This document shows, in pieces, positions 2,463 to 64,000 of a DNA stretch of 64,000 nucleotides. The notes under the pieces were generated by a model. That model did no database searches. It saw nothing but the letters and a program-made list of their open reading frames with translations, and had not been told where the DNA came from. The position numbers were made by a program, and so were the translations under genes. Every line of letters starts with the position of its first letter. The first letter of the stretch is position 1. This stretch comes from Nosocomiicoccus ampullae. Lineage in GTDB: Bacteria; Bacillota; Bacilli; Staphylococcales; Salinicoccaceae. The stretch is taken from NCBI RefSeq assembly GCF_001696685.1, contig NZ_MBFG01000010.1, positions 59,122 through 123,121 on the forward strand. Reading direction: 5' to 3'.

Positions 2463-2490
2463 AAAACCACTCATTTTCGAGTGGTTTTTA
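2463..2490 (+). terminator. Terminator after SDR-like gene
   Basis: AAAACCACTC (2463-2472) and GAGTGGTTTT (2479-2488) flank a 6-nt loop and run into T-rich sequence directly after the SDR-like stop codon. Confidence 0.9.
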
Positions 2491-2500
2491 TCTATTATGC

Positions 2501-2560: not shown

Positions 2561-2575
2561 ATTAGGCGGTTTCAC

Positions 2576-5290: not shown

Positions 5291-5304
5291 TCGCTTACAC
5301 TTTT

Positions 5305-5354
5305 AAGGAGGTGATGGGTGCGCTACAGCTTGAAATTTAGTGGGGGCTAAATTT
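5305..5354 (+). promoter_or_regulatory. Strong SD plus 10-codon leader and hairpin before sstD
   Basis: Inside the 80-bp gap between the ATPase and lipoprotein genes lies AAGGAGGTGAT (5305-5315), a near-perfect match to the 16S rRNA anti-SD. Six nt after GGAGG, a GTG at 5318 opens a 10-codon frame ending in TAA at 5348-5350. Its end lies in a hairpin formed by AAATTTAG (5333-5340) and CTAAATTT (5347-5354). There is no T-run. This resembles a stabilising SD with processing hairpin that would raise lipoprotein mRNA relative to the upstream genes; that role is inference. Confidence 0.5.
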
Positions 5355-5370
5355 AGAAAGGGAAGTTTAA

Positions 5371-6447
5371 ATGAACATTAAGAAATTATCAGCATTACTT
5401 TTATTATTTATAGGAGTTATCGTACTTGCTGCATGTAGTAACGACGGAGGTACAGATCAGTCAGAGACAAAAGAAGAACCAGCTAAAGATGATGAGGAAA
5501 CTGTAGAAACAACAGTTCCATACACAAATAACTTTGATATGAGTCTTACAACAGAACGTGATAGCGATACTGAAGCTGTTGACGAAACAATTGACGTAAT
5601 TAAAAATTCTAACAAAGTAGTTTTATTAGACTTAGGGGTTGCATCAACGTTTGAAGCACTAGGTTTACAAGATAACGTTATCGCGTTACCTAAAGGTGAG
5701 AACGACTCTATTCTTGGACCTGAGCTAGAAACTTATAAAGATGAGAAGTATGTAAACCTCGGTGGGTTAAAAGATCCAGACTTCGAGAAAATTGCAGAGT
5801 TAGATCCAGAAATCATCATGATTGGTGGACGTCAAGCAAACAAACCATCAATCGAAGAATTTAAAAAGGCAGCACCTAACGCATCAATTATTTATGTAAG
5901 TGCTCAATCTGACAACTACTTTGAAGACATTAAAGAAATGACGACATTTATCGGAGAATTATACGATAAACAATCAGACGCAGAAGCGTTAAACAAAGAA
6001 TTAGATGAAAAAATCGAAGAAACTAAAAACTTAGTTTCCGAAAAAGATAAAACGATGATGTTCATCCAAACAAATGGTGGCGACCTATCACTACACGGCC
6101 CAGGCGGACGTTATGATTTCTTATACAATCCAATCGGATTCAAATCTTCCGAAGGTGACTCAGAAGACAAAACTGCGTCACATGGTAACCAAATTTCATT
6201 TGAGTACATCTCTAAAGCAAACCCAAGTATGATTTTAGTGATGGACCGTGGTGCAGCGATTAGTAACGGTGAGGATGCTACAAAAGTAGACGTACTTAAA
6301 ACTGATGTTACTAACAACGTAGATGCTGTAAAAGATGATAACATCTTTGAATTAAATTCAGTAAGATGGTACTTAAACTCTGGTGGTCACGCGTCAGCGA
6401 TTGGCCAACTAGAAGAATTACAAGGGTTTTTAAATGAAGTAAAATAA
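5371..6447 (+). CDS. sstD: Siderophore-binding lipoprotein (FatB/YclQ/SstD type)
   Basis: A 358-residue substrate-binding lipoprotein. The signal peptide ends at the lipobox LAAC (Cys near residue 22) and is followed by an acidic linker rich in Glu and Asp. Two lobes follow with the class III layout: NKVVLLDLGVASTFEALGLQDNVIALP opens lobe one and ALNKELDEKIEETKNLVSEKD is near the connecting helix. The C-terminus RWYLNSGGHASAIGQLEEL is typical. It captures ferric catechol siderophores outside the membrane and delivers them to the two permeases. It is the last gene of the operon, with its own strong leader region upstream. Confidence 0.87.
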   Translation: MNIKKLSALLLLFIGVIVLAACSNDGGTDQSETKEEPAKDDEETVETTVPYTNNFDMSLTTERDSDTEAVDETIDVIKNSNKVVLLDLGVASTFEALGLQDNVIALPKGENDSILGPELETYKDEKYVNLGGLKDPDFEKIAELDPEIIMIGGRQANKPSIEEFKKAAPNASIIYVSAQSDNYFEDIKEMTTFIGELYDKQSDAEALNKELDEKIEETKNLVSEKDKTMMFIQTNGGDLSLHGPGGRYDFLYNPIGFKSSEGDSEDKTASHGNQISFEYISKANPSMILVMDRGAAISNGEDATKVDVLKTDVTNNVDAVKDDNIFELNSVRWYLNSGGHASAIGQLEELQGFLNEVK

Positions 6448-6455
6448 TTAAAAAA

Positions 6456-6486
6456 CGATCCAAGATTTAATCTTGGATCGTTTTTT
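6456..6486. terminator. Bidirectional terminator between sstD and murB
   Basis: CGATCCAAGAT (6456-6466) and ATCTTGGATCG (6470-6480) with A-run before and T-run after, so it can end transcription from both sides. The 3-nt loop is the murB stop codon and one arm encodes the last murB residues. Confidence 0.9.
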
Positions 6487-7390
6487 CTGTATGTTCACCG
6501 ATAATTCTAACTTCGCGCTGTAACAGCACGTCATACTTTTCTTTAACGACTTGTTGTACGTGGTGAATTAACTCTTCGTAATCACTACCTGTACCGTTGT
6601 CGATGTTTACCATAAACCCGGCATGCTTTTTAGAAACTTCCACGCCACCCACTCTATGTCCTTGTAGACCACTATCTTGAATCAGTTTTCCCGCAAAGTG
6701 TCCCGGGGGTCTTTGGAATACCGAACCACAAGACGGTAAATCAAGCGGTTGTTTTGATTCACGTAAAAACGTCAGCTCATCCATTTTCGCATTTATTTCA
6801 GATGAACTACCTTCTTCTAATTTAAATGTCGCTTCGACGACTAAATATCCATTCTCTTGAACGATACTTTGTCTATATCCGAGGTGTAATTCCTCATTTG
6901 TTAAAGTTAATAATTCTCCATCTGGCGTAATTACTGATGCTTCTACGAGGCAGTCTTTTAATTCGCCACCGTACGCTCCAGCGTTCATATATACAGCGCC
7001 TCCGACGCTGCCTGGAATGCCACACGCAAATTCTAATCCAGTTAGTGAATGGTCGCGCGCAAAACGTGATACGTCAATAATTCGACTACCACTGCCTGAC
7101 GTAATATAATCGCCATCACGTTTAATTTCTTTTAACTCTAACGTGTTTAACACAATCCCTCTAATGCCACCGTCTCTAATAATTAAATTCGAACCATTTC
7201 CAAGATACGTAATTGGTATTGAATACTCTTTTGCAAAACGGATAGTTTCCATTGCATCGTGAATATTATATACTGATATATAGTAATCTGCATTACCACC
7301 AGTATGTGAATACGTATAGCGTTGTAATGGTTCATCTGTTTTAATGACAGAATTTGTTAGACGCTCGCGTAAGGATTTTTCAATGTTCAT
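6467..7390 (-). CDS. murB: UDP-N-acetylenolpyruvoylglucosamine reductase
   Basis: A 307-residue FAD enzyme that reduces enolpyruvyl-UDP-GlcNAc to UDP-MurNAc with NADPH in the cytoplasmic phase of peptidoglycan synthesis. FAD-binding segments [20 protein letters not shown] (about residues 61-80) and [19 protein letters not shown] (about 124-142) are intact, as is [10 protein letters not shown] near residues 221-230, which carries the catalytic Ser. The length fits type II MurB. Start ATG has AAAGGAC upstream on its strand. It stands alone, convergent with the siderophore operon, sharing a terminator that overlaps its last codons. Confidence 0.95.
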
Positions 7391-7449
7391 AACAAAAGTC
7401 CTTTCTCATACGAATCAATTACTATTATAAACGGGAATACAAAAAAAGA

Positions 7450-7486
7450 CTAGAATAACCATGCAAGAGGAAGGGTGAGATTCTAG
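7450..7486 (+). promoter_or_regulatory. Hairpin framing the ribosome binding site of the YkyA-like gene
   Basis: CTAGAAT (7450-7456) and ATTCTAG (7480-7486) could pair and hold the ribosome binding site GAGGAAGGGTGA (7467-7478) in the loop, with the stem ending one base before the ATG at 7488. A possible translational control element; the short stem makes it uncertain. Confidence 0.3.
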
Positions 7487-7487
7487 C

Positions 7488-8378
7488 ATGTTTCGATATT
7501 TAAAGTTAACGATATTAATCGGCACAGTCTTCATTATATCTGCGTGCCAGTCATCGTTAGAAAGTGACATCCAGCAATATGAAGAAAATATGGAAGATAT
7601 TTATGAACTCGACCGACAATTTCTTGAGGCACTCGACGAACTCGACTTAAAGCAACTAGAGACAGTCTATGCAACAGAGGCAGATGTTTCAAAAGATGAC
7701 ATCGCTGAAATTAAAAAAGTAGTCGATGAATCTCTCGTCCCATTGTCGACTAAAATGAATGAAAAAATAGAAACGGTAGAAGTTTCAAACGAAGAGTTAA
7801 AAGAAGTGCATGAAGATTATGTAGAGAGTTTAGAGTTAAAAGAAACGTTCGCGAAAGAGCTCGGACGTGGGATCGATTTATATTTATCGTATAAAGAGTC
7901 GACAAATCAACTCATTAAAGACGGTGAAGCCGTCAGTGCGGCAAAAAAAGAACGTCAGTCTATTATCCAAGGCAACCACTCTAAAGTAGCTGCAGCAGAA
8001 ATCGACCAAGTGATAGACATCGTCAATGAGCGTAGTGGTGAGCTTGAAGAAAATGTCGGTTTATTACAAAGCGATAACGATGTAGCTGAGAAACAACGCA
8101 TTGTGGATGAAGTACTAATGCCAATTTTAGATACACAAATCGACAAATTAAATCAATTATCACTTGAAACTGACGAAGCAAAATCTGTACGAAGTATCAG
8201 TTTAGAAATGTTTTATACATTCAAATCATATTACAAAGAACGTATTAACATCATCCAAGTATACGAAGAAGAACAAAATCTTCAAATTCAAAACATCGTT
8301 CCAAAAACAGAATCGTTTAATAAACTTGATATGACGTACTCAGAAAAACTGAATCAATTAAAAGAATCTACAAAATAA
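7488..8378 (+). CDS. YkyA-like cell-wall-binding lipoprotein
   Basis: A 296-residue lipoprotein with lipobox ISAC (Cys near residue 20) followed by an almost entirely helical, highly charged chain with coiled-coil character. Its size and heptad-rich sequence resemble the YkyA/putative cell-wall-binding lipoprotein family of Bacillus and staphylococci. Function is unknown; it should sit on the outer face of the membrane. No enzymatic motif is visible. It lies between murB and a small membrane-protein gene and ends at a strong bidirectional hairpin. Confidence 0.65.
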   Translation: MFRYLKLTILIGTVFIISACQSSLESDIQQYEENMEDIYELDRQFLEALDELDLKQLETVYATEADVSKDDIAEIKKVVDESLVPLSTKMNEKIETVEVSNEELKEVHEDYVESLELKETFAKELGRGIDLYLSYKESTNQLIKDGEAVSAAKKERQSIIQGNHSKVAAAEIDQVIDIVNERSGELEENVGLLQSDNDVAEKQRIVDEVLMPILDTQIDKLNQLSLETDEAKSVRSISLEMFYTFKSYYKERINIIQVYEEEQNLQIQNIVPKTESFNKLDMTYSEKLNQLKESTK

Positions 8379-8380
8379 TA

Positions 8381-8409
8381 ACTGCACATCATATTGATGT
8401 GCAGTTTTC
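8381..8409. terminator. Terminator between YkyA-like gene and small membrane-protein gene
   Basis: ACTGCACATCA (8381-8391) and TGATGTGCAGT (8395-8405) form a perfect 11-bp stem with a 3-nt loop followed by TTTT on the plus strand. It also faces the end of the minus-strand gene. Confidence 0.88.
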
Positions 8410-8416
8410 CATTTCA

Positions 8417-8632
8417 TTATTTCTTTGTCGGATCTTCCATTTTACCGTCACGTATTCTAGAGATGATAATGTTTCTAGAAATGACTGTAACCATCCAAAA
8501 TGCGAATACAATCACAAAAATCCAAGATACGAGTGCGTTATTTTGGAAATCCAGTACGTATAAAAACACAACGATTAAAAGTGTCGCGTTAATCGTGTCT
8601 AAAATCGTCCAACGTTTTAATTCTCTTTGCAT
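8417..8632 (-). CDS. Small two-helix membrane protein
   Basis: About 71 residues with two hydrophobic segments (TINATLLIVVFLYVLDF and LVSWIFVIVFAFWMVTVI), a basic N-terminus and a charged, hydrophilic tail ending in DPTKK. I do not recognise a named family. The start chosen is the ATG at 8632, which has AAAGGG about 8 nt upstream; a GTG at 8641 is in frame but touches that site. It is transcribed alone, divergent from the bacilliredoxin gene. Confidence 0.65.
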   Translation of the reverse strand: MQRELKRWTILDTINATLLIVVFLYVLDFQNNALVSWIFVIVFAFWMVTVISRNIIISRIRDGKMEDPTKK

Positions 8633-8728
8633 ATTTTTCACCCTTTCAAATTGTACTAAATTGATTTTAATTTGATTTTAATATAAAACCGTGATAAATT
8701 AATTAAAGCTATTAAGGAGTTGTTCAAG

Positions 8729-9049
8729 ATGTTAACAAAGATAACATCAATCGAGTCATTTGACCGATTGCTCGAAGAAAAGCCATATTTTTACTTTATG
8801 AAACATAGTAACACATGTCCAATCTCTGCGACAGCGTTTGAGGAGTTTCAAAAGTTTCACTATGAACGTGATATCGATGGCTATTATTTAATCGTTCGAG
8901 ATCACAGAGAACTTTCAAACTACATTGCTGAAAAATTTAACATTAAACACGAATCACCACAAGCGTTTTACTTTGAAAATGGTGAAGTGAAGTGGCACGA
9001 TTCACATAGTAAAATAACAGTTCAAGCACTTGCACGTGTTGAAGATTAA
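8729..9049 (+). CDS. ytxJ: Bacilliredoxin BrxC/YtxJ
   Basis: A thioredoxin-fold protein of 106 residues with the monothiol motif KHSNTCPIS near residues 26-34, characteristic of YtxJ (BrxC), which removes bacillithiol from S-bacillithiolated proteins in the cytoplasm. The cis-Pro region appears as ESPQAFYFENGEV. The start is the ATG at 8729, 9 nt after AAGGAG (8714-8719); an in-frame TTG at 8720 directly abuts that site and is unlikely. Monocistronic with a strong terminator. It implies that the organism makes bacillithiol. Confidence 0.88.
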   Translation: MLTKITSIESFDRLLEEKPYFYFMKHSNTCPISATAFEEFQKFHYERDIDGYYLIVRDHRELSNYIAEKFNIKHESPQAFYFENGEVKWHDSHSKITVQALARVED

Positions 9050-9080
9050 AACAGGAAACTGAAATGTTTCCTGTTTTTTT
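9050..9080. terminator. Terminator after ytxJ, shared with the GGDEF gene
   Basis: AACAGGAAAC (9050-9059) and GTTTCCTGTT (9066-9075), 6-nt loop, then T-run. The convergent GGDEF gene ends inside the T-run. Confidence 0.88.
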
Positions 9081-10134
9081 ATCCAACTGGAGCAAACATA
9101 ATTCTATTTTGTCCTTGTTTTTTCGCTGCAAAAAGCATGTTGTCTGCTTGGCGAATGACGTCTTTTTTAAGCATCGTCTGAGTCGACTTATAACCGATGC
9201 CAATAGATACAGTCATGTTAACGACGTGCGTATCATCAATGTGGAACTTTGTATGTTCAACAGTGTAACGAATCGCCTCACCAAGACGGACTGTCTGGTC
9301 AAACGATAAATTTGGAATGACCATCGAGAACTCTTCTCCTGTACTTCTAAACATCTCCCCACCTGTAGGTAGATGGTTTTTTAACAGGCGAGCAATTTGT
9401 TTAATGAGCTCGTCCCCAGAATCATATCCGTTGATATCATTAAAAAACTTAAAGTTATCGATGTCGATTAATAATATGCTGACGTTTTCTTCTTCTTTAA
9501 ACAATTTGTCGATGAAGCGGTCAAACATTTTAACGTTACCAAGTTTTGTAAGACGGTCGTAATATTTATATTTTTCTCTATCGATAAAGAAGTTAAATGT
9601 TCGATTAATGTCTTCGTATACTAACAATATAAAGATAGTTGCACATAAAGACGATAAGAAAAATGCTATTAACGTCTTATCGTTAATTGGTGTGACGAAA
9701 ATATACAACAGAATTAAGTATACGACAGTGAATAGTCCACTCGACAATATGATAATACTCGTCTTTGGTGTTTTAATGAACGGTACAATTAGTTGGTAAA
9801 GCACCATGAGCACTAAAAATATCACAAACTGGATGAGGTCGTATTGAAATAAGAAATGATAAAACAAAAATACGATTACAATCGATACTATTTTATACGG
9901 TATTTTATTGTGTAAAAACAATAGAATTATCGGTATGTAATATAGCGATAACGTGACGTCCCCTATATGTAAAGGAACCATAAGTGATAACACAGCTAGG
10001 ACGGTCATCATTAAACTTTGGAATAGAAGTGGGTTTTTAACGCCTTTTCTAAAATGATACTGCAAGCGATAAAACACATAGATTCCACTAATAATGAGCG
10101 CGATATTTAATATAAATTTTATAATCATTTGCAT
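9079..10134 (-). CDS. gdpS: Membrane GGDEF-domain protein (GdpS-like)
   Basis: A 351-residue protein with about six N-terminal membrane segments (residues 1-175, a 5TM-like sensor) and a C-terminal GGDEF domain (about 190-345). Metal and fold motifs such as LLIDIDNFKFFND and VSIGIGY are present, but the active-site motif reads STGEEF, so the first Gly of GGDEF is Thr. It lies next to tagO as gdpS does in S. aureus, the GGDEF protein of that lineage whose biofilm effect was reported not to need cyclic di-GMP. Either ATG at 10134 or 10128 could be the start. Monocistronic. Confidence 0.82.
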   Translation of the reverse strand: MQMIIKFILNIALIISGIYVFYRLQYHFRKGVKNPLLFQSLMMTVLAVLSLMVPLHIGDVTLSLYYIPIILLFLHNKIPYKIVSIVIVFLFYHFLFQYDLIQFVIFLVLMVLYQLIVPFIKTPKTSIIILSSGLFTVVYLILLYIFVTPINDKTLIAFFLSSLCATIFILLVYEDINRTFNFFIDREKYKYYDRLTKLGNVKMFDRFIDKLFKEEENVSILLIDIDNFKFFNDINGYDSGDELIKQIARLLKNHLPTGGEMFRSTGEEFSMVIPNLSFDQTVRLGEAIRYTVEHTKFHIDDTHVVNMTVSIGIGYKSTQTMLKKDVIRQADNMLFAAKKQGQNRIMFAPVG

Positions 10135-10258
10135 ACCGCCTTTTTGAGCAAATTCATATCATATTATACAGTGTTTTAAATTTAATTGAAATTAAGTGGT
10201 AGGAGTATTTAATAGCGAATTATGATATAGTTAATAAGAATAATTAACGGGTGAGGAT

Positions 10259-11311
10259 ATGTATACATTATTTCTATTAATATTATCTGCAATCATATCA
10301 TTCATCGTTGCACCGATATTTATAAAGTTAAGTTATAAGTTTGGATTTGTCGATTATCCAAACCATAGAAAACAACATGCGAAACCGATGCCGTTTTCCG
10401 GCGGAATATCGATTTTTGTATCATTTGTGATTACATTAATTATCGCTCGACCGATCGAACCAGAATACATACCGATTATTCTCGGTGGAGGGTTAATTGT
10501 ATTAATTGGTATTATCGACGATAAATATGATCTAAAACCGAGTATTAAATTCATTGGACAACTCGTTGTTATTACGATACCAGTGATGTTTGGGGTTGTC
10601 ATTGATACGATTACGCCGTTTGGGATAACGGTAGATTTCGGTATATTTGCGATTCCATTTACGTATTTATGGATTGCAGTGATCATTAACGCAGTTAACT
10701 TAATTGATGGATTAGACGGATTAGCATCTGGTGTAACAGTTATAGCTTTAGCAAGTATTGCAGTAATTGCGATTTTACAAAATAATATATTTGTCATGAT
10801 GATAAGTGTCATACTCATCGGGTCAACGCTTGGAGTATTATATTATAATTTCTATCCAGCGAAGCTCTTTTTAGGGGATAATGGGTCGATGTTTTTAGGG
10901 TATGTACTCGGAGTATTATCGATATTAGGATTTAAAAACGTGACGTTTTTCTCGATTCTATTCCCAATTATCATTCTTGGCGTACCGTTTATAGACATTA
11001 CGTTTGCTGCCATTAGACGGTATAGAGAAGGGGTCTCACTGACTCGTGCCGATAGAGGGCATTTACACCATAAGTTACAATACTTAGGGTTTACGCACCG
11101 TCAAAGTGTGATTTTACTTTACTTGATGGCAACGCTATTTGCATTCGCGTCAGTAATTTTATATTTATCGACAGTGACAGGTGCAGTACTCATTTGTTTA
11201 CTGCTTATCTTATCGGTCGTCATTATAGTAGAAGCGACGGATTTGATAGGATCAACCCGCCGCCCGATTTTAAGATTTGTTAAACGAATGTTTATATATA
11301 TGAATCGCTAG
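10259..11311 (+). CDS. tagO: Undecaprenyl-phosphate GlcNAc-1-phosphate transferase
   Basis: A 350-residue polytopic membrane enzyme that transfers GlcNAc-1-phosphate from UDP-GlcNAc to undecaprenyl phosphate, the first step of wall teichoic acid synthesis. About eleven helices are expected. Signature loops are present: IDDKYDLKP near residue 87, the catalytic NAVNLIDGLDGLASG near 144-158, FYPAKLFLGDNGSMFLGY near 197-214, and the His-rich RGHLHHKLQYLG near 262-273. It converges on the YigZ gene, sharing a CTAG tetranucleotide that contains both stop codons. Confidence 0.93.
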   Translation: MYTLFLLILSAIISFIVAPIFIKLSYKFGFVDYPNHRKQHAKPMPFSGGISIFVSFVITLIIARPIEPEYIPIILGGGLIVLIGIIDDKYDLKPSIKFIGQLVVITIPVMFGVVIDTITPFGITVDFGIFAIPFTYLWIAVIINAVNLIDGLDGLASGVTVIALASIAVIAILQNNIFVMMISVILIGSTLGVLYYNFYPAKLFLGDNGSMFLGYVLGVLSILGFKNVTFFSILFPIIILGVPFIDITFAAIRRYREGVSLTRADRGHLHHKLQYLGFTHRQSVILLYLMATLFAFASVILYLSTVTGAVLICLLLILSVVIIVEATDLIGSTRRPILRFVKRMFIYMNR

Positions 11312-54934: not shown

Positions 54935-55286
54935 GGGGACGTTCTGGATTCGACAGGGGTTATTGAGCACTTTAAGCGTGTCGGAGGTTTCGACTTCGTT
55001 ATCAACGATACTCAGTTATAATAACTGGCAAAACTAACAATCTCGTAGCTGCATAATTCAGCTACATCGTCTCGTACGTTTTCTTGTGACCTACTGAGAC
55101 GATTCAACTTTAGCAAGATATACTAGAAGTCTTCCGTCTGCAGACTTCTAGAAGAACTTAACCAGACTAGCATGAATTGTGGAACGTTCTCTTCCGGCGT
55201 TCATGCGAAACTTTAATTGAGAACTACACACGTAGAAAGAAGTGTAGCAAGATCCTTGGACGCGGGTTCGACTCCCGCCGTCTCCA
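54935..55286 (+). ncRNA. ssrA: Transfer-messenger RNA
   Basis: Begins GGGGACGTTCTGGATTCGAC and ends with the tRNA-like T-arm (GCGGGTTCGACTCCCGC) and CGTCTCC pairing with the 5' GGGGACG, discriminator A at 55286; CCA is not encoded. The tag frame is GGC-AAA-ACT-AAC-AAT-CTC-GTA-GCT-GCA-TAA at 55027-55056, giving GKTNNLVAA after the Ala charged on tmRNA. With SmpB and RNase R it rescues stalled ribosomes. The 3' 180 bp recur in decayed form at 63593-63771, so the gene's 3' end probably came with the island. Confidence 0.95.
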
Positions 55287-55300
55287 TATATTTTTACATC

Positions 55301-55343
55301 AATGAGATTACTTCACGAATAGTAGGTTAATCTCATTTTTTAT
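55301..55343 (+). terminator. Terminator after ssrA
   Basis: AATGAGATTA (55301-55310) and TAATCTCATT (55328-55337), long loop, then T-run. It lies on the island side of the junction. Confidence 0.75.
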
Positions 55344-55434
55344 GTAAAAATAAGATTGATATGTAAATCACATAGAAGTATAATAGTAATATCGATTTTA
55401 TGAAAATATCATTATAAATAAAGGAGAAATAAAT

Positions 55435-56142
55435 TTGAAAAACAAATTATTATTATCATCCCTAACACTCGCAGCAACTTCGATATTAATAGCGTCACCA
55501 ATTATTGCAGCAGTACACCAAAGTGCTGAATCTGAGGCGAAAGTTACCTTTACTGCACCTGAAGATACTCCAGAAATTTTAGACCCTGAAACATTACAGC
55601 CAGGTACTCCAGAAGATGGTAATGTTACAGGTAATACAGGACCATTATCTTTAGATTTTGTTTCTAATATAGATTTTGGTACACACGAAATTTCAACTGC
55701 AGCTGCTAAGTACGAGTCGGTTAGTGAAAGACCATATATTCAAGTTTCCGATCGTCGTGGTACTGGACAAGGTTGGAGTGTAAGTGCTCAAGCTTCTCAT
55801 TTCACTCAAAACGGTACGAACACTTTAGAGGGTGCAGTTATTTCATTCTTAAATGGTGAAGCAGCCTCTCCATTACAAGGAGTTAATCCACCGTTAGTAA
55901 ACAATAATATCGTTTTAAATACTGGTGGAGACAGTGCATCAGTTGTTAATGCTGAAGGTCGTTCAGACAATGCACAAATTGGAACAGCACAAGGTCTTGG
56001 AACATGGATTGTTAAGTGGCTAAAAGGTGACGGAGAAACAAACGAAAAAGTAACTTTAGATGTTCCACAAGGTGCCGCTTCAGCAGGTGAACATACATCT
56101 ACAATTACTTGGACTTTATATGATGGACCTGGTAACCAGTAA
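55435..56142 (+). CDS. Small WxL-domain surface protein
   Basis: A 235-residue secreted protein: signal peptide to about residue 28, an acidic Pro-rich segment with LDPETLQPGTPEDGNVTGNTGPLSLDFVSNIDFG, then a WxL domain with the two signature sites GWSVSAQ and TITWTLYDGP near the C-terminus. WxL domains bind peptidoglycan non-covalently. The layout matches WxL proteins of enterococci, listeriae and lactobacilli. Start is TTG 55435, 7 nt after AAAGGAGAA. A terminator separates it from the next gene, suggesting more transcript for this protein. Confidence 0.88.
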   Translation: MKNKLLLSSLTLAATSILIASPIIAAVHQSAESEAKVTFTAPEDTPEILDPETLQPGTPEDGNVTGNTGPLSLDFVSNIDFGTHEISTAAAKYESVSERPYIQVSDRRGTGQGWSVSAQASHFTQNGTNTLEGAVISFLNGEAASPLQGVNPPLVNNNIVLNTGGDSASVVNAEGRSDNAQIGTAQGLGTWIVKWLKGDGETNEKVTLDVPQGAASAGEHTSTITWTLYDGPGNQ

Positions 56143-56158
56143 TATAAGCGAAAATCTT

Positions 56159-56186
56159 AACCCTGAACAGTAGTTCGGGGTTTTTC
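56159..56186 (+). terminator. Attenuating terminator after first WxL gene
   Basis: AACCCTGAAC (56159-56168) and GTTCGGGGTT (56173-56182) with T-rich tail, 15 nt before the next start, so partial read-through is likely. Confidence 0.75.
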
Positions 56187-56200
56187 TTTAGAGGAAGTTG

Positions 56201-57208
56201 ATGATGAAAAGAATTACATGGATATTGCTATCTATACTACTATTATTTAATATCGCACCTACAGCATTAGCAAGTGAAGAAGTTCCGTATTCTTTACGTA
56301 CGATTTTACCGAACAGTCAAGTTGATTCTGAGAAGACATACTTTGATTTAGCAGTTGAAAAAAATACTACAGAGAAATTACAAGTAGAAGTATTTAATAA
56401 CTCAAATGAACCAATCGAAGTTAAAGTTAGCGCAAATACAGGAGCGACAAACAGTAATGGATTACTTGTTTACGATGGTTCAATTAAAGAGTTCGATAAC
56501 TCTTTAAAATATAATTTTACTAAAATGACAGATGTACTCACACCGACGTTAAAAATTGAGCCATATGAGAAGGCAATCGCAGAATTTTCTATTCAAATGC
56601 CAGAAAAAGATTTCGATGGCACGATTTTAGGTGGCTTAAGATTTTTACTTATAGATGATTCAAAAGAAGACTCTTCCGGTGTACAAATTAAAAATAACTA
56701 CGCGTATGAAATTGCAGTTGTTCTAAATGACAAAAATAGTAATAAAAAATTGCAAGAAGAAATTGAAATAAATCGTGTTAACCCTGGATTAATTAATAAT
56801 AGAACAGGTTTAAATGTTGAATTTAGCAATAAGCAACCATTACTAATGACAAATTCAAAAATCGAGGGTGCTGTATTTAAGAAGGGGAACGATACACCAT
56901 TATACGAAAGAAAAGATGACAACTTTTCAATCGCACCAAATGCTTTATTTAATCATCCTATATCTTTTAATAATGAAAAATTAAAAAAAGGTAAGTATGT
57001 CTATAAAGGAACGATTACAACGGATAATGAAACATTTGAATTCGAGAAAGAATTTGAAATTACTGAAGAAACTGCAAAAGAAGCGAATGACAATGCTGTA
57101 GAAGTTGAAAAAAATGACTGGAAAACATTTGCATTAATCATTGCAGGCATGACTATTTTTGGTTTATTAATACTGTTAATACTCATGGTAATACGAAAGA
57201 AAAAGTAG
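56201..57208 (+). CDS. WxL-interacting protein (DUF916/DUF3324)
   Basis: About 335 residues: signal peptide (residues 1-25, cut after ALA), DUF916 domain (YSLRTILPNSQVDSEKTYFDLAVEKNTTEKLQVEVFNNSNEPIEV), DUF3324 domain (about 150-290) and a C-terminal membrane anchor (TFALIIAGMTIFGLLILLILMVI) with RKKK stop-transfer. Such proteins bind WxL domains and peptidoglycan and hold the complex at the cell surface. Start ATG 56201 or 56204 after GAGGA. It lies between two WxL proteins, the usual gene content of a WxL locus. Confidence 0.88.
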   Translation: MMKRITWILLSILLLFNIAPTALASEEVPYSLRTILPNSQVDSEKTYFDLAVEKNTTEKLQVEVFNNSNEPIEVKVSANTGATNSNGLLVYDGSIKEFDNSLKYNFTKMTDVLTPTLKIEPYEKAIAEFSIQMPEKDFDGTILGGLRFLLIDDSKEDSSGVQIKNNYAYEIAVVLNDKNSNKKLQEEIEINRVNPGLINNRTGLNVEFSNKQPLLMTNSKIEGAVFKKGNDTPLYERKDDNFSIAPNALFNHPISFNNEKLKKGKYVYKGTITTDNETFEFEKEFEITEETAKEANDNAVEVEKNDWKTFALIIAGMTIFGLLILLILMVIRKKK

Positions 57209-57219
57209 GGTGAATTAAT

Positions 57220-59613
57220 ATGATAAAGTATTTAAACTTAATATTATGTATTTTATTAATGACGCCCGCAACGCTCGTACAAGCGGCAGAAATGACGGCA
57301 GTAAATTCATGTAATGTTAATTATTCAGTAGATATAGTAGATTCTAAAACTATTAAAGGTACTGGAAATAATGAAAAACCGGTTGAGCTTTATGTTAATG
57401 AACAATTTGTAGAAGAAACAATTGTAAATGATGGAGAATATCTTTTTTCCTTATCTACCGCTTTAGAGGATGAGGATAAAGTAAAACTCATTAGTGAAAA
57501 CAATATTCTAAGCATAGATTATAAGATAGATGCAGAAAATACGAAAAGCTTTGACGACATATACCAATGTGAAAAAACTGAAGAATCAAGTGAATCAGAC
57601 GATAAAGATGCGACCGAAACAGAAGATACCGCGGATGATAAAGAAGCAACAGACATATCTGAAAGCAATGGTAATAAAGAAGATGAGTTAGAAGTCGCTA
57701 ATGAAGAAAAGGAAATAGCAACGCGTTCTACAACAGAACGCCAGTTTGAAGCAGGGAAATGCCCAACAGCAGAGGAGTACAATACATCAAAAAGTAATTT
57801 GATTGGATCGGTAATTTCGAAATCTGTTACTGGTGAAGTAAGATGTGTAAGTACAGCTGATGAATTCAATAAAGCGATAGATGATAGAAATGTTGAAGTG
57901 ATACTATTTACAAACGATATTTCTACGGATAGGAATCAATACATTTATTCAAATTATAATCAAAAAATTTTAGACGGTAATGGTTACTCTTTAAATATTG
58001 GTTCTAGCAGGCTCTATAATACGAGTATTTCTGAGATAACTGTTATGAACTTTTCAAACTTATCTACTACTAACTCACATAGGGATAATGGTATGTTTAG
58101 ATCGAACTATCCGAGCCAACTTCGTTTAAAAGATGTTGCTTTTAATGGCGGTCATATCGGTGCGAGTTGGGAAAGTGTACTTCACGTATATGGTAATGTC
58201 ACAATAAACGCGAGTGCAGACTACGCGGCATATTATAGATTTTACGAAATTCATGACGGAGCAAATTTCACAGTGAATGGTGCACGTGGAGGTTTATATG
58301 CACAATCAAATAATAAAGAGAATCTAGATCTTAATGGAATCAGAGTCGGAGAAAATGCGGTAGTAAATGTTACTGCGAATAACGGTGTAGCATTATATTC
58401 ACGAGGGGTTTATCAAAAATATGTTGAATCAGGTGCGAATAGTCGCTTATCTTTAAAATCTTTAAATTCAAATGCGGTTCAATTCAGTGATGATAAAGAC
58501 TTTTTCATTACTGCGCATCACGATGGAGAAATTATTTTAGAAAGTTTGAATAGCCCAGTGACATCACAAGGAATAGGCGCTATTACAATGGACGATCATG
58601 GTAGTCTAATCGTTCGTAAAACTGGTAATTCAAATGCACCTTTATTCTCAACTAACAGTGCGGTGACACTCAATGTCTATTATCCTAATGTGGTAGATTT
58701 TGACAATATGAATGGTCCGATTTTCCCTACAGAAAATGTGCTTAAAACTTTTAACGTAAACTATGTAAGTATGGAAGGCTATGCAACTCAAAATAAAACA
58801 CCGGATTATAAAACAAATATGTTAAACGGTTCATTTACAATGAGTGGAAATACTACTAATGCAGATTCATCGATTAAAAAAGTTGCTCCAAATTTTAATC
58901 AGGAATTTAAATCTACATTGAAGAGAATAAGAATGATTGGAGATATTAAAGTTAATATAAAAGTGAATGAACCTGTTACAGATGAAAGTACTAAGATTAC
59001 CGGTACTGCTACAGCTAATCGTAAAATTAAAATGCTTAATACACGTACAAATAAAGTGTATGAAACGACTAGTGACAATACAGGCAAATTTACTTTTAAT
59101 AATATTCCAATAGGTGACTTAAAAGGTGATGACAAGCTTAAGTTTTTTGTAGTAGTTGATAAATATGAAATACCAAGCGCTGAAGTTATTGTTGAAGGTA
59201 CAATTTTAGAATTACTACCAGTTGAAGATATTGTATTTAAAGACACAAAAATCACCAATGTTCCAGAGTCAATTATTAAAAGAAAGAGTAACCCTCATAA
59301 AGTGAAAGTGAGAAGTACTAAAAAAAGTGATTTTTCAGTAAGTGTCTATAGTAAAACACCGTTAACACATACAAATGGAATTGATCAGCTTAAAAATGCA
59401 CTTTACTTCGTAAAAAATAAAGATTTTAAACTGATTGAAGGGGAAGTAAATAGACAAACAGTCGGTAAAAAGTCGGATGCTACAAAAAGTGGAGATGAAT
59501 TTCACTTTAATTTTAATGAAGATGAAGGAATTTTATTAAAAACAAATCCAGCGACTGCTCAAAGAGGTAGTTATCAATCAACACTAGTGTGGACGTTAAC
59601 AGATGGACCATAA
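57220..59613 (+). CDS. Large WxL adhesin with pectate-lyase-like domain
   Basis: A 797-residue secreted protein. Signal peptide (residues 1-23), an Ig-like strand set (about 25-105), an Asp/Glu/Ser-rich spacer (about 120-165), a beta-helical pectate-lyase-like adhesive domain (about 205-500, starting VSTADEFNKAIDDRNVEVILFTNDIS), a bacterial Ig-like domain (NIKVNEPVTDESTKITGTATANRKIKM, about 585-665) and a C-terminal WxL-like domain ending STLVWTLTDGP. No LPXTG is present, so anchoring should be by WxL. Likely ligand-binding adhesin; the ligand is unknown. Confidence 0.82.
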   Translation: MIKYLNLILCILLMTPATLVQAAEMTAVNSCNVNYSVDIVDSKTIKGTGNNEKPVELYVNEQFVEETIVNDGEYLFSLSTALEDEDKVKLISENNILSIDYKIDAENTKSFDDIYQCEKTEESSESDDKDATETEDTADDKEATDISESNGNKEDELEVANEEKEIATRSTTERQFEAGKCPTAEEYNTSKSNLIGSVISKSVTGEVRCVSTADEFNKAIDDRNVEVILFTNDISTDRNQYIYSNYNQKILDGNGYSLNIGSSRLYNTSISEITVMNFSNLSTTNSHRDNGMFRSNYPSQLRLKDVAFNGGHIGASWESVLHVYGNVTINASADYAAYYRFYEIHDGANFTVNGARGGLYAQSNNKENLDLNGIRVGENAVVNVTANNGVALYSRGVYQKYVESGANSRLSLKSLNSNAVQFSDDKDFFITAHHDGEIILESLNSPVTSQGIGAITMDDHGSLIVRKTGNSNAPLFSTNSAVTLNVYYPNVVDFDNMNGPIFPTENVLKTFNVNYVSMEGYATQNKTPDYKTNMLNGSFTMSGNTTNADSSIKKVAPNFNQEFKSTLKRIRMIGDIKVNIKVNEPVTDESTKITGTATANRKIKMLNTRTNKVYETTSDNTGKFTFNNIPIGDLKGDDKLKFFVVVDKYEIPSAEVIVEGTILELLPVEDIVFKDTKITNVPESIIKRKSNPHKVKVRSTKKSDFSVSVYSKTPLTHTNGIDQLKNALYFVKNKDFKLIEGEVNRQTVGKKSDATKSGDEFHFNFNEDEGILLKTNPATAQRGSYQSTLVWTLTDGP

Positions 59614-59764
59614 AGTATAAACATTTCAATTAAAACAGAGTGTTATTTAACCGAGGTCTCAGAATATAAAGCTTTATAGGTTAGGGTTTCAAAGTAGCAA
59701 GTGTCAAATATGTGTCAAATGTTTAATTATGAAATTCAAAAGAAGTATCAACTTTAATAAGTTG
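59614..59764. other. Intergenic segment with 11-bp tandem repeat
   Basis: No gene. Contains GTGTCAAAT at 59701-59709 and again at 59712-59720, an 11-bp period direct repeat, in a gap between convergent genes. It could be a protein-binding site such as an integrase arm site left from the element; there is no direct proof. Confidence 0.3.
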
Positions 59765-60301
59765 TTACTTCTTTTTCTTTGGCCAAATAAAAAATGAAAT
59801 TGTGATAATCAAGTCTACTACAATTACAATCGTCCAAACGTTCGTTACTCCATCTAATGCTTGTGTCTCTTCATTATTGTGGACGAGTATTTTTATCAGA
59901 TAAAGTAATCCAGTTCCTATTACGTACGCAATAATATGTTTCATGAACGACTTTGCATATAGTTTTGCATAGTCATATCCAAATATTTGCCCTGGCTTTT
60001 CTCCTTGCTTCATTACATAATATCTAAAACGGTCATCAATCCAGCGGATCATATCTCTACCAAACACTAGTGACACAGCAATATACAAGGTAGCTATCGC
60101 ATGTGGATATCCTGCTGTTGCTCCGTTCATCAAATCAAACGTCGTCACTATCAAAAGCACCACATCAATCACTGGTGTCATTGCTAAAAATATAAAACCT
60201 AACTTTTCTTTTCTAAAAATATATCTAAACACTAACCCTATGGCAATTACTACCCAAAAGGCGATTTCACAAAATACAATTAACCAAGCGATGTAACTCA
60301 T
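59765..60301 (-). CDS. Multi-pass membrane protein of unknown function
   Basis: About 178 residues with five or so hydrophobic segments (IAWLIVFCEIAFWVVIAIGLVF, LGFIFLAMTPVIDVVLLIVTTF, AIATLYIAVSLVFG, HIIAYVIGTGLLYLIKIL, TIVIVVDLIITISFFIW) and a basic C-terminus WPKKKK. It faintly recalls YmcC-type Bacillus membrane proteins, but I would not name it. Start ATG 60301 (reading leftward) lies 9 nt after GAGGAG; upstream TTG/GTG codons touch that site. Convergent with the WxL operon. Confidence 0.7.
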   Translation of the reverse strand: MSYIAWLIVFCEIAFWVVIAIGLVFRYIFRKEKLGFIFLAMTPVIDVVLLIVTTFDLMNGATAGYPHAIATLYIAVSLVFGRDMIRWIDDRFRYYVMKQGEKPGQIFGYDYAKLYAKSFMKHIIAYVIGTGLLYLIKILVHNNEETQALDGVTNVWTIVIVVDLIITISFFIWPKKKK

Positions 60302-60487
60302 AGACACCAACTCCTCAAATAGGCTACTTGAATTATATTCTATTTAAATAATTAAAAACAATCATTATTATGCTTATTCATGTGTGAGGTAAATAATTTT
60401 TCTTGAGTTTTAGTCAAAATAGTATATAATTCATATCACTACTTATAAAATACCAAAATCGCAAAAAAGGTAATTAAGGTGAAGAAA

Positions 60488-61720
60488 ATGAGCAAATATT
60501 ATCCACTAAACAAAGTGTTTCATATGAACAGTGAAAATCACGAAGTAGAGTACCAAAATAGATTAAATCAATTAAGTGCCTATCTCACAGAAATAGAAAT
60601 AAAGCCGATTAGAAATGGGAATTTTTACAATGAATCTTTTCCTTTGTTTTTAGTAAACACACACAAGTTAGCAGCTTTAAATGAAGCAATCATTGAAAAT
60701 AGTCGTACAATTACTCTTCTGAAAAATCGATTGCCGAGCGCATCACAACAAAGTTTCTATACCAATCTACTTATTAATGAAATACAAAGTACAAACGAAG
60801 TAGAAAATGTTAGAAGTACAAAAAAAGAAATATCTGAGGTGTTAGAAGATATTAAAAACAGTGATTTAAAGAAAGGTAGTATCGCAAAAAAGAGATTGTT
60901 TGGTCTTGTAAAACTGTATTATTATATTGAGAAAGAGTCAGAAATCACTAAGATTGAAGATATTCGTTCAATCTATGATGAACTAGTTTCATCTGAAATT
61001 TCAAAAGGGGATAGACTAGATGGTGAGCTTTTTAGAAAAGGTTCTGTAAGTGTTTATAGTGGAGGTAAAGAAATTCACAGAGGTGTTAAGTCAGAATCAA
61101 AAATCATTTCTATGTTAGGACAGATGATTAGTTTCATTAGAAATGATGATATGCCTTATCTATACAAATTAATGCTCTCGCATTATATATTTGAATATAT
61201 TCATCCATTCTATGATGGTAATGGAAGAATGGGGCGTTATATTGTATGTAAGTTTTTGTCTAAAAAATTAGATGTTTATTCTGCAGTGACATTCTCAACT
61301 ATTATAAATAACCATAAGAGTAAGTACTATAAGGCTTTTACAGAAACATCTCATCCATTGAACAAGGCAGAGGCAACTTTTTTTGTACAAGCTATGCTAG
61401 AAATGATCGTTGAAGGACAAGAACACGTCATAGCTATACTTGAAAAAGATATAGACAAAATAAATAAGATAAGTAATAATTTAGATGCATTAGTAGAAAA
61501 AGAATTTGATCGTTCTGTTCTTTTTATAATGGCTCAAAGTGCTATTTTTCAAAACAAATCTAATAGAATTTCAGTAAATGAATTAGCATACGAACACGAT
61601 TGCGAAAGAAGAAAAATCTTAAGTGCTTTAGATAGATTTAAAGATCAATTGGAAGTAGTAAAAATGAGACCAACGATATATACATTAACTGATGAGTATC
61701 TTGATGAATTATTATCTTAA
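60488..61720 (+). CDS. Class II Fic-domain protein (putative AMPylator)
   Basis: About 410 residues. The Fic core has HPFYDGNGRMGR near residue 240, matching HPFx(D/E)GNGRxxR with the catalytic His and phosphate-binding residues intact. An N-terminal inhibitory helix motif TNEVEN (near 102-107, the [S/T]xxxE[G/N] pattern) marks class II, where the Glu blocks ATP until relieved. A C-terminal winged-helix region (about 340-410) could bind DNA or a partner. It probably transfers AMP to a protein; the target is unknown. GTG 60479 is an alternative start. It stands alone. Confidence 0.85.
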   Translation: MSKYYPLNKVFHMNSENHEVEYQNRLNQLSAYLTEIEIKPIRNGNFYNESFPLFLVNTHKLAALNEAIIENSRTITLLKNRLPSASQQSFYTNLLINEIQSTNEVENVRSTKKEISEVLEDIKNSDLKKGSIAKKRLFGLVKLYYYIEKESEITKIEDIRSIYDELVSSEISKGDRLDGELFRKGSVSVYSGGKEIHRGVKSESKIISMLGQMISFIRNDDMPYLYKLMLSHYIFEYIHPFYDGNGRMGRYIVCKFLSKKLDVYSAVTFSTIINNHKSKYYKAFTETSHPLNKAEATFFVQAMLEMIVEGQEHVIAILEKDIDKINKISNNLDALVEKEFDRSVLFIMAQSAIFQNKSNRISVNELAYEHDCERRKILSALDRFKDQLEVVKMRPTIYTLTDEYLDELLS

Positions 61721-61738
61721 AGCTCTGTGTTTATAAGT

Positions 61739-61766
61739 GCTAGGTGATTTATCACCTAGCTGTTTT
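61739..61766 (+). terminator. Terminator after fic gene
   Basis: GCTAGGTGAT (61739-61748) and ATCACCTAGC (61751-61760), tight loop, then TGTTTT. Confidence 0.75.
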
Positions 61767-61784
61767 AAATTTCTTTAAAACAAA

Positions 61785-61826
61785 AGAGATAACAACTAAC
61801 TGCCTAAAGCAATTGACATTATCTCT
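61785..61826 (-). terminator. Probable terminator of the GNAT gene
   Basis: AGAGATAA (61785-61792) and TTATCTCT (61819-61826); on the minus strand the hairpin is followed by TTTGTTTT. Confidence 0.5.
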
Positions 61827-61876
61827 CTGTTTGATTTTATAATATTTTATTGAATTTGATTTTTTAAAGAAAAATC

Positions 61877-62431
61877 TTACTTTACATAAGTCATATGATA
61901 ATACTCTTGCCCATACAATTCGAGGACCTCGTCTTTTTTAAACCCAAGCTTCAGATAAAGGCCTAAAGCCTTCTCATTCTCTACTTCACAAAGGAGTCCC
62001 CAAGGGAGTGTTTCATCACTATCTAGTAAATAATTAATTAACTTCGTCGCAATACCTTGACCACGGTATTCACTAAACGTCGCCACGCTATCGATGTACA
62101 TTTCATTGTCACGTGCTTCTCTCAATTCAAGTGGTGGACTATATGGATGGAATTTCTTGTCCAGTCCAAGTTTCTCCCACACGTGTTTAAATTCGTGTTC
62201 GGTATGTCCTGGATAGCTCAGAACGAATCCCGCAACATCTCCATCTACCTCATACACGTGAATGGTTCTTTTTGAGTTTCGAAAGTCTTCGTCACTGAGA
62301 CACATTTCAAACGCTTCGAGTACAGTTTCTTTATCAAATTTCTCAATTATTTCGAGATCCATACCTTCCCAAATAATATAAACAAGCTCAGCGACTTTTC
62401 TGTTATCTTTCTGTTTCTTTTTACGGATCAC
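61877..62431 (-). CDS. GNAT-family N-acetyltransferase
   Basis: A 184-residue acetyl-CoA-dependent acetyltransferase. The core carries MYIDSVATFSEYRGQGIATKLINYLL (acetyl-CoA loop RGQGIA near residues 123-128) followed by LLCEVENEKALGLYLKLGFKK, the usual strand-helix pair, and a charged N-terminal helix. The substrate cannot be predicted. GTG start at 62431 with GGAGAGG 5 nt upstream. It lies alone on the minus strand inside the island. Confidence 0.85.
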   Translation of the reverse strand: MIRKKKQKDNRKVAELVYIIWEGMDLEIIEKFDKETVLEAFEMCLSDEDFRNSKRTIHVYEVDGDVAGFVLSYPGHTEHEFKHVWEKLGLDKKFHPYSPPLELREARDNEMYIDSVATFSEYRGQGIATKLINYLLDSDETLPWGLLCEVENEKALGLYLKLGFKKDEVLELYGQEYYHMTYVK

Positions 62432-62746
62432 AAAAACCTCTCCTTTTCCTTATATTTCTATCGTAACAAAACAAGTGTCTTTTCGGTAATCTTAAAAATT
62501 CCTACATAATTGCTATAGAAGGATGTGTATAATAATTTCTGCCTTCCGGAGGTTGAATCTTTTCTTTACCTTTAAATACACGCATGTTTCCACCCGAAAT
62601 TTCATTTATCTATCGTAAAAATAAAATGTGGCATTGTAATTCAAACTCAGTTTTATCAGGGCTTTTTTGATTTGAGCAAATTATTAATAGAGTGATGTTG
62701 AATGATGATAGAATACGGTAATCAGATTAAGAAGGATAGGTATTAA
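62432..62746. other. 315-bp gap between GNAT and VOC genes
   Basis: AT-rich. Besides the promoter regions expected for the two divergent genes, it holds one 27-codon minus-strand frame (62502-62585). No repeat, RNA gene or phage site is evident. Confidence 0.5.
62502..62585 (-). pseudogene. 27-codon frame, small peptide or gene relic
   Basis: ATG at 62585 (reading leftward) preceded by GGGTGG opens a 27-residue frame, MRVFKGKEKIQPPEGRNYYT and then HPSIAIM, ending in TAG. Its varied, non-repetitive composition and its ribosome-binding-site-like sequence make it more gene-like than chance, yet it is too short to name. It may be the start of a gene cut short in the island, or a small peptide. 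Confidence 0.25.
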
Positions 62747-63517
62747 ATGAATTTCCATAAGGACAATGCTCAAGTAACAAACATTACATTAAACATTCAA
62801 GATTTAAGTAAAATGAAAGATTTTTATATAAATATTTTAGGCATGAAATTAATTGAAGAAAGTGAAGCAGGTTTCGTTGCTGGTTTTGAAGGTAGTACGC
62901 ACACATTCACTTTTGAAGTATTAGAAAATGGTAGAGTAGCAGATCAAAATGAAGCTGGATTATTCCATATCGCAATTTTACTTCCAACTCGAAGTGACCT
63001 CGGTCGTTTTATTAAATACATGTTTAGTAGACAGATTCCTCTATCAGGTGGAGATCACTTAGTGAGTGAAGCAACGTATCTTGTTGACCCTGAAGGAAAC
63101 GGTATTGAAGTATATGTGGATAGAGATCCAGATACATGGTCTTGGTCCAATGGACAAGTGGTAATGGATACTCTAGCTTTAGACTTTGCTAGTATTGTTG
63201 AATCGAGTCGTAATACAGAGTGGTCAGGTATGCCAGAAGGTACGATTATCGGACACTTGCACCTGAAAGGTGGCGTGGCGATTGACCCAGATTTCTATGA
63301 TAACTACGGATTTGAAATCGCGACTAAAGTCATGAGCGCATATTTCTTAGCTTCAAATAAATATCACCACCACATTGCAGTGAACAAGTGGCATAGTAAC
63401 AAAGCAAGAATCGATGCAATGAACACATACGGCTTAAAATCATTTAACATTTCAGTTCCAGACGCTCCGAGCGAAATAGTAGAAACACCAGAAGGTATTA
63501 AAATGGTCGTAAACTAA
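62747..63517 (+). CDS. VOC-family (glyoxalase/dioxygenase fold) protein
   Basis: A 256-residue protein with two paired VOC modules (about 8-125 and 165-256), similar to CatE-like ring-cleavage proteins. Some metal positions are kept (LFHIAIL and GNGIEVY in the first half, GHLHLKG and YHHHIAVNKW in the second) but the first module starts VTNITLNIQDL without His and the last PEGIKMVVN lacks the Glu, so neither module has a full set. Enzyme activity is uncertain. ATG after AAGGATAGG. It directly precedes the tmRNA relic and marks the island's end. Confidence 0.75.
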   Translation: MNFHKDNAQVTNITLNIQDLSKMKDFYINILGMKLIEESEAGFVAGFEGSTHTFTFEVLENGRVADQNEAGLFHIAILLPTRSDLGRFIKYMFSRQIPLSGGDHLVSEATYLVDPEGNGIEVYVDRDPDTWSWSNGQVVMDTLALDFASIVESSRNTEWSGMPEGTIIGHLHLKGGVAIDPDFYDNYGFEIATKVMSAYFLASNKYHHHIAVNKWHSNKARIDAMNTYGLKSFNISVPDAPSEIVETPEGIKMVVN

Positions 63518-63592
63518 ATAAACGATAAAGCGGCACTCTTAGAATAATCTTAGAATTTATAGATTATTCTTTAAATAACAAGATAGTCCCTA

Positions 63593-63771
63593 TTTAGCAA
63601 GATATACTAGAAGTCTTCCGCCTGCAGACTTCTAGAAGAACTATATCAGACCAGCATGAATAGTGGAACGTTCTGTTCCGGCATTCATGCGAAACTTTAA
63701 TTGAGAACTACACACGTAGAAAGAAGTGTAGCAAGATCCTTGGACACGGGTTCAACTCCACCGTCTCCATA
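63593..63771 (+). pseudogene. Decayed copy of tmRNA 3' end (attachment remnant)
   Basis: 179 bp aligning to 55109-55288 with, by my count, 11 substitutions and one deletion. It begins at TTTAGCAAG inside the pseudoknot region and ends at CGTCTCCATA. The T-arm, intact upstream as GCGGG/CCCGC around TTCGACT, is broken here (ACGGG, TTCAACT, CC-AC). There is no 5' half, so it cannot form tmRNA. It is best explained as the original host ssrA end displaced when an element inserted. Confidence 0.9.
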
Positions 63772-63776
63772 CATCG

Positions 63777-63805
63777 CCTACAGCTCGTAAGAGTTGTAGG
63801 TTTTT
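63777..63805 (+). terminator. Terminator after tmRNA remnant (probably the original ssrA terminator)
   Basis: CCTACAGCTC (63777-63786) and GAGTTGTAGG (63791-63800), GTAA loop, then TTTTT. It follows the relic by 5 nt, as a native ssrA terminator would. Confidence 0.75.
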
Positions 63806-63880
63806 GTGTTGAAAACTCCTTAAATTAAAGTGTTATATATTGAATTATCTTCACCAATAGAAAATTTTTTATGTATTTAG

Positions 63881-63910: not shown

Positions 63911-64000
63911 ATGAAACTATCGTTTAAATCTTTAATATTTTATATGAAATTTAGAGGTGTTGAATTCAAACACATTGACGAGTATGAAGCTATGAAAATA
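63911..64000 (+). CDS. Unidentified CDS, 5' part only
   Basis: An ATG at 63911 after AAAAAAGGA opens a frame that stays open to the window edge (30 codons: MKLSFKSLIFYMKFRGVEFK and on). Too short to assign. It is the first gene outside the presumed island and may belong to the conserved chromosome. Confidence 0.45.
   Translation, partial: MKLSFKSLIFYMKFRGVEFKHIDEYEAMKI

What the first reader, a model, noticed from the sequence alone, without database searches (positions are those of the whole stretch)
55109..63771. Island bounded by a 180-bp duplication of the tmRNA 3' end
The sequence shows an intact ssrA at 54935-55286 and a second, mutated copy of only its last 180 bp at 63593-63771 in the same orientation. 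Everything between is accessory. The duplicated stretch is far longer than a usual recombinase core site, so the incoming element seems to have carried a large replacement piece of tmRNA. The present host tmRNA would then be a chimera: native 5' part and element-borne 3' part. The relic has a broken T-arm and the presumed native terminator still sits behind it. No integrase is present.
Basis: partly seen in the sequence, partly recalled or inferred. Interest (0 to 1): 0.85.

Follow-up and report, generated by a model that had tools for sequence, protein, structure and literature searches.

The report
tmRNA-gene island array without integrase
In a bacterium of the Staphylococcus family, foreign genes have been stacked behind the tmRNA gene by elements that carry a worn 180-base piece of that gene; this is a well-preserved example of a known kind of genomic island, not evidence that the host's tmRNA was replaced.

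Summary
In detail: intact ssrA (54935-55286) and, 8.3 kb downstream in the same orientation, a damaged copy of its last ~178 bp (63593-63769; 166 of 178 aligned bases identical, one 1-nt T-arm deletion), with accessory genes and no integrase between. The genus is Nosocomiicoccus. Three held relatives give an empty site (G002), a site with part of the same genes and no relic (G003), and an array with two relics (G001, N. massiliensis). The region is a stack of modules, not one clean insertion. The relic travels with the VOC gene and leader on its left: N. massiliensis holds the same VOC-leader-relic with the same seven marks, followed by a different terminator. All four combinations ssrA|T2, ssrA|T3-like, relic|T2, relic|T3 exist, so exchange happened in the last 11 bp (CCGTCTCCATA). 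Nearly all of the relic is thus element-borne by inference, and the host tmRNA is not demonstrably a chimera. Two island genes are far closer to G003 than core genes are; others are closer to another genus. Known kind: arrays of ssrA islands lacking integrases. Unusual: the length of the tmRNA piece.

The parts
54935..55286 (+). intact ssrA (tmRNA), tag GKTNNLVAA
55109..55286 (+). part of ssrA that is repeated downstream
55278..55288 (+). CCGTCTCCATA, the block after which the downstream sequence switches between relatives: inferred crossover region (same block at 63761-63771 in the relic)
   Evidence: inference
55287..55345 (+). terminator-like T1, shared with N. massiliensis ssrA (50 of 50 bases) and not with G002 or G003; element-derived by inference
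55435..56142 (+). WxL surface protein
   Evidence: PF13731
56198..57208 (+). WxL-interacting protein (PF06030, PF11797)
57220..59613 (+). large surface protein beside the WxL genes, pectate-lyase-like adhesive domain (PF20585)
59720..59801 (+). scrap of the distal part of T2 (sequence behind ssrA in G003 and behind relic180 in G001), running into the 3' end of the membrane gene: eroded module border
59765..60310 (-). membrane protein (by reading) without Pfam match; 90% nt identity to an ssrA-adjacent gene of another genus (G011)
60479..61720 (+). Fic-domain protein; no full-length relative in the 33 family genomes searched (3 partial matches)
61877..62431 (-). GNAT acetyltransferase
62747..63517 (+). 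VOC (glyoxalase/dioxygenase superfamily) protein, right-end gene of the module
63518..63592 (+). leader between VOC and relic with a hairpin; a matching leader precedes both relics of N. massiliensis
63593..63769 (+). tmRNA 3' relic with 1-nt T-arm deletion
63770..63812 (+). terminator-like T3, similar to the sequence behind ssrA in the empty-site relative G002 and behind relic60 in N. massiliensis

Best explanation
The region is a composite genomic island: several modules accreted one after another at the 3' end of ssrA. Each insertion happens by exchange in the last ~11 bp of the gene, so ssrA keeps its own body and receives a new terminator from the incoming module, while the old terminator is pushed to the module's far end. 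The module on the right ends in VOC gene + leader + a ~178-bp, already damaged tmRNA 3' fragment that it carries itself as its attachment end. The module encodes no recombinase, so an ssrA-specific tyrosine integrase acts in trans or has been lost (inferred). Shown: relic, modules, junction switching, closer kinship of island genes than of core genes across species. Inferred: the enzyme, the order of events, present-day mobility.
For: Empty site in G002. Same VOC-leader-relic with the same seven private marks in window and N. massiliensis before different terminators. Four combinations exist: ssrA|T2 in G003, ssrA|T3-like in G002, relic|T2 in G001, relic|T3 in window; the T2 pair scores 79, T3 pairs 66, 35 and 35, 0 of 1000 shuffles each; pairs of unlike terminators reach 9-20 (27 others 9-20 against T3). 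Window versus G003: VOC dS 0.056 and GNAT 0.248, while all 4 core genes compared have dS 0.98-2.39. Versus the other genus G011: 71.5% nt identity for rnr-smpB-ssrA but 90% for the membrane gene and 87% for VOC (GNAT only 77%); a 4.85-kb stretch with the thioredoxin-reductase-like and iron-transport genes is 89% identical between G001 and G011. In G005 a tyrosine integrase lies against ssrA, with a 22-bp repeat (20 identical) covering the same last bases, CGCCGTCTCCATTTA.
Against: No integrase in or next to the Nosocomiicoccus modules. A typical attachment fragment starts near the crossover; ~165 bp of extra tmRNA upstream of it is unexplained. G003 and G011 carry the VOC module without any relic. 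T3 in G002 is only 83% identical over 30 bp. Some unlike terminators also reach shuffle fractions of 0.008-0.026 at scores 19-20. N. massiliensis is a draft; the two contigs break inside the WxL region, so the array order is partly assumed. Only three genomes of the genus are held.
Confidence: 0.68

Rival explanations
1. One reading: one element carried a 180-bp replacement of the tmRNA 3' end; the relic is the displaced native end and the present tmRNA is a chimera.
For: T3 behind the relic resembles the ssrA terminator of the empty site. One T-loop base (A in relic, G002 and G003; G in window and G001 ssrA) fits a native relic.
Against: Relic marks travel with VOC-leader and meet two different terminators. 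The T-loop base varies: 13 of 27 outgroup genes have A, 14 of 27 G. No divergence jump in the 3' part of ssrA.
Confidence: 0.15
2. RecA-driven exchange: the 178-bp tmRNA repeats act as portable homology, and modules are gained, lost and duplicated by ordinary homologous recombination or transformation.
For: No recombinase; repeats long enough for RecA (established knowledge, recalled); three VOC 3' ends and two relics in N. massiliensis suggest array duplication and deletion; relic60 is identical to the window's ssrA over its 59 bp, undamaged T-arm included.
Against: The T2/T3 switch sits in an 11-bp block, too short for RecA (recalled); flanks between genera are only ~71.5% identical.
Confidence: 0.15
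3. Old, frozen islands (not exclusive of the best explanation): modules were inserted by lost integrases long ago and now only decay.
For: No integrase, eroded border at 59720, truncated VOC copies in G001.
Against: VOC dS of only 0.056 between species whose core dS is about 1-2.4 needs comparatively recent transfer.
Confidence: 0.3

Closest known systems
Dehalococcoides ssrA genomic islands (PMC3146451, PMC2764846; passages seen)
   Same: Tandem islands behind ssrA bounded by ssrA 3' repeats; 15 islands without an integration module, suggested there to be possible cis-mobilizable elements mobilised by accretion.
   Different: Repeats of about 20 bp and a serine recombinase module in 16 islands; here ~178 bp and no recombinase in the island or beside ssrA in the three held genomes of the genus.
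Integrative islands in tRNA/tmRNA genes catalogued by Islander (PMC4383910; passages seen)
   Same: A tDNA plus a displaced fragment marks the ends; the element restores the gene; damaged fragments (148 of 3919 islands), tandems of two or more (125) and T-stem/junction sites (1836) are listed.
   Different: Islander requires an integrase; its stated damage is a small deletion 3 bp upstream of the discriminator, here the deletion is further upstream, in the T-arm.
'Traffic at the tmRNA gene' (Williams 2003; not held; recalled)
   Same: Recalled: ssrA as a favoured site, arrays, element-supplied terminators, damage at attachment sites.
   Different: Could not be read; no comparison made.
Phage HP1 attachment site (recalled; search found no paper)
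   Same: Recalled: about 182 bp of near identity between phage and host site in tRNA genes, so long shared segments have precedent.
   Different: Recalled: HP1 encodes its integrase.

Membership tests
ssrA-integrated genomic island | intact ssrA plus same-orientation 3' fragment at distance | tested here: met
ssrA-integrated genomic island | empty site in a relative | tested here: met
   G002
Islander-type integrative island | encodes a site-specific integrase | tested here: not met
   none near ssrA in G001-G003. Filed therefore as an integrase-less ssrA island only
cis-mobilizable element / accretion array | flanking attachment-type repeats without own integration or transfer genes | tested here: met
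cis-mobilizable element / accretion array | several modules each bounded by a site fragment | tested here: inconclusive
   relic60 and relic180 in G001; in the window only one fragment remains and the inner border is eroded
cis-mobilizable element / accretion array | sites recombine, element excises | not testable with these tools
   needs an excision assay

The most novel reading that the evidence does not exclude
VOC-leader-tmRNA3' is a purpose-kept end of a family of integrase-less elements: the long tmRNA fragment is itself conserved (5 differences in 179 bp between species, against about 24 expected from VOC synonymous sites) and lets cargo move among Staphylococcaceae at ssrA by recombinases in trans or by RecA, with the T-arm damage forcing viable exchanges into the last 11 bp so that the host tmRNA always survives.
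Probability: 0.2. Interest if true: 0.6.

Novelty: new member of a known kind. Interest (0 to 1): 0.42.

Why it matters
It gives an unusually readable record of how islands stack at ssrA: junction swaps show where exchange happens and that an attachment fragment can belong to the element rather than to the displaced host gene. That warns against reading every displaced tmRNA fragment as proof of a chimeric tmRNA. It also documents island traffic between species, and probably genera, of Staphylococcaceae without a resident integrase.

Tried and rejected
Viral contigs hold no exact match to a 30-base tmRNA core. The window's own assembly is not held, so DNA beyond 64000 could not be read. A constraint argument for the relic (5 differences versus 23.6 expected from the VOC synonymous rate, Poisson 4e-6) was weakened: the low divergence also covers the last 155 bp of VOC (3 differences, 1 at a third position), so a recombination tract is as likely. 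Window-G001 VOC dS (0.146) lies within the range of the other 19 rows for that pair (0.052-0.636, which include two antisense ORFs, the WxL gene and the membrane gene; without these 0.139-0.355), so no transfer is claimed for that pair. Two remnants in G002 related to the G005 integrase (67.5% over 77 aa and 63% over 60 aa) were followed: one lies next to what reads as tRNA genes, the other on a phage-like contig; no exact ssrA end block was found on either contig, so they are not claimed as the missing enzyme. G058 has a split integrase of this type next to ssrA, but no convincing second ssrA repeat in the 8 kb fetched. Rows not used or redone: the G011 row was cut on the wrong strand and ignored; rnr for window-G001 failed and the first WxL pair was not produced, both redone; one search printed only the 11 of 27 outgroup loci that lie on the + strand, so the T-loop and terminator comparison was redone for all 27 (counts changed from 5 A, 6 G to 13 A, 14 G; the conclusion did not). 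A possible tmRNA trace near 59655 was judged chance-level and not claimed.
Full report
Observation. ssrA at 54935-55286 is intact. A second copy of its last 178 bases lies at 63593-63769 in the same orientation: 166 of 178 aligned bases identical, 12 mismatches (one is the boundary base), and one deleted base in the T-arm. Between them lie two WxL-type genes and a large surface protein gene, a membrane protein gene without Pfam match, a Fic gene, a GNAT gene and a VOC gene. There is no integrase among them.

Host. An exact 43-base tmRNA pattern gives three loci in genome contigs, all Nosocomiicoccus: N. massiliensis NP2 (two contigs) and Candidatus N. stercorigallinarum (one) (the window's own genome may be left out there). 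NCBI places the genus in Staphylococcaceae. G003 is an unnamed third genome of the genus; no more than these three are held. The window shares 33% of sampled 31-mers with G001.

How common. In one search, 59 of 60 relatives match the tmRNA 3' end; 3 of 60 have more than one match: G001 (3), G017 (2) and G033 (2). The extra pieces in G017 and G033 are only 28-30 bp; the long piece is seen only in G001. The 33 family genomes bear handles already and give the same result. Pieces shorter than about 28 bp would be missed at this threshold.

Locus by locus (gene names without a Pfam call are by reading the ORFs). G002: ssrA, a T3-like terminator, ~260 bp, then the common right flank (cold-shock-like gene, lipoprotein-like gene, aroD-like gene): the empty site. 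G003: ssrA, terminator T2, a scrap of the membrane-gene region, GNAT, VOC, thioredoxin-reductase-like and iron-ABC genes, then the common flank; no relic. G001 on two contigs: ssrA, T1, WxL genes (contig break), WxL-region gene end, VOC 3' scrap, leader, relic of ~60 bp with intact T-arm, T3, TAXI/TRAP transporter, GntR-type regulator and FAD/Fe-S oxidoreductases, VOC, leader, relic of 178 bp, T2, membrane gene, what reads by eye as the first codons of the Fic gene fused to a VOC 3' scrap, then a pyridine-nucleotide oxidoreductase and iron-transport genes (for the first two) and the cold-shock-like gene of the common flank. Window: ssrA, T1, WxL genes, eroded border with a T2 scrap, membrane gene, Fic, GNAT, VOC, leader, relic, T3, new ORF. 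In the other genus G011: ssrA, the membrane gene, two GNAT-like genes, further genes, VOC, the oxidoreductase and iron-transport genes, flank; no relic.

Horizontal spread. Synonymous divergence window-G003 is 0.98-2.39 in all 4 core genes compared (esterase-like, rnr, eno, smpB) but 0.056 for VOC and 0.248 for GNAT. The oxidoreductase gene is 0.188 between G001 and G003. Against G011, rnr-smpB-ssrA is 71.5% identical, the membrane gene 90%, VOC 87%, GNAT 77%. Window-G001 VOC (0.146) is within the range of core genes for that pair (0.139-0.355) and needs no transfer. The WxL gene is more diverged than the core for that pair (dS 0.64, dN 0.16).

Whose is the relic? Six substitutions and the T-arm deletion are shared by the window relic and the 178-bp relic of G001 and absent from the four ssrA genes of the genus. 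Both relics follow the same VOC and leader. On the right, the window has T3 and G001 has T2. T2 follows intact ssrA in G003; a T3-like sequence follows intact ssrA in G002 (T2 pair score 79; T3 pairs 66, 35, 35; 0 of 1000 shuffles reach any; unlike terminators of the genus score 9-20, some with shuffle fractions of 0.008-0.026; 27 outgroup sequences score 9-20 against T3). All four combinations of left body and right terminator therefore exist, which calls for exchange in the block they share after the deletion: CCGTCTCCATA, 11 bp. Hence the relic left of that block is most simply on the element side, and the host ssrA is native up to that block. The alternative, one displaced native relic whose terminator was later swapped, also needs exchange in the same 11 bp. 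The 3' part of ssrA shows no foreign signal: mismatches window-G001 2 (5' part) and 2 (3' part), window-G002 12 and 5, window-G003 12 and 5.

Enzyme. None of the tyrosine-recombinase matches of G001-G003 lies near ssrA. Of 33 family genomes, by eye comparison of the coordinates, only G005 has one directly behind ssrA; its island ends in a 22-bp repeat, 20 identical, containing CGCCGTCTCCATTTA, that is the same end of ssrA. G058, outside the family, has a split relative of that integrase next to ssrA. So an enzyme that works at the inferred place exists in the order; that it served here is inference. G033 shows another integrase-less ssrA island with a 29-30 bp repeat.

Known background. Tandem ssrA islands, 15 of them without an integration module and discussed as cis-mobilizable elements, are described in Dehalococcoides (PMC3146451 and PMC2764846, passages seen). 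Islander lists damaged fragments and tandems (PMC4383910, passages seen). Searches for Nosocomiicoccus with 'genomic island' (10 of 14 papers listed) and with 'tmRNA' (1 paper) showed no title or abstract start that describes this locus; only listings were seen, and the library holds open-licence papers only.

Verdict. Observation confirmed; island interpretation supported but it is an array; chimeric tmRNA not supported. New member of a known kind, with an unusually long element-borne tmRNA piece.

Noticed in passing
L061 (G033), 1080-10807: 9.3-kb ssrA island with genes that read like icaA/icaB/icaC and two SgrR-like regulators, 29-30 bp ssrA repeat, no integrase (names from reading the ORFs, not from a family search).
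   Followed up: partly
L062 and L063 (G017): ssrA near a contig end followed by a TIR-like and a reverse-transcriptase-like ORF (by reading); a 30-bp ssrA 3' repeat near the start of another contig: possible defence island at ssrA.
   Followed up: no
L074 (G002:C10) 2184-2700: Decayed integrase related to the G005 ssrA integrase next to what reads as tRNA genes.
   Followed up: partly
window 55435-59613: The WxL genes differ more between window and N. massiliensis than core genes do (first gene dS 0.64, dN 0.16): fast-evolving or separately acquired surface proteins.
   Followed up: no
window 63911-64000: A new ORF starts behind T3, unlike the common flank of G002/G003: the accessory region may go on beyond the window.
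   Followed up: no
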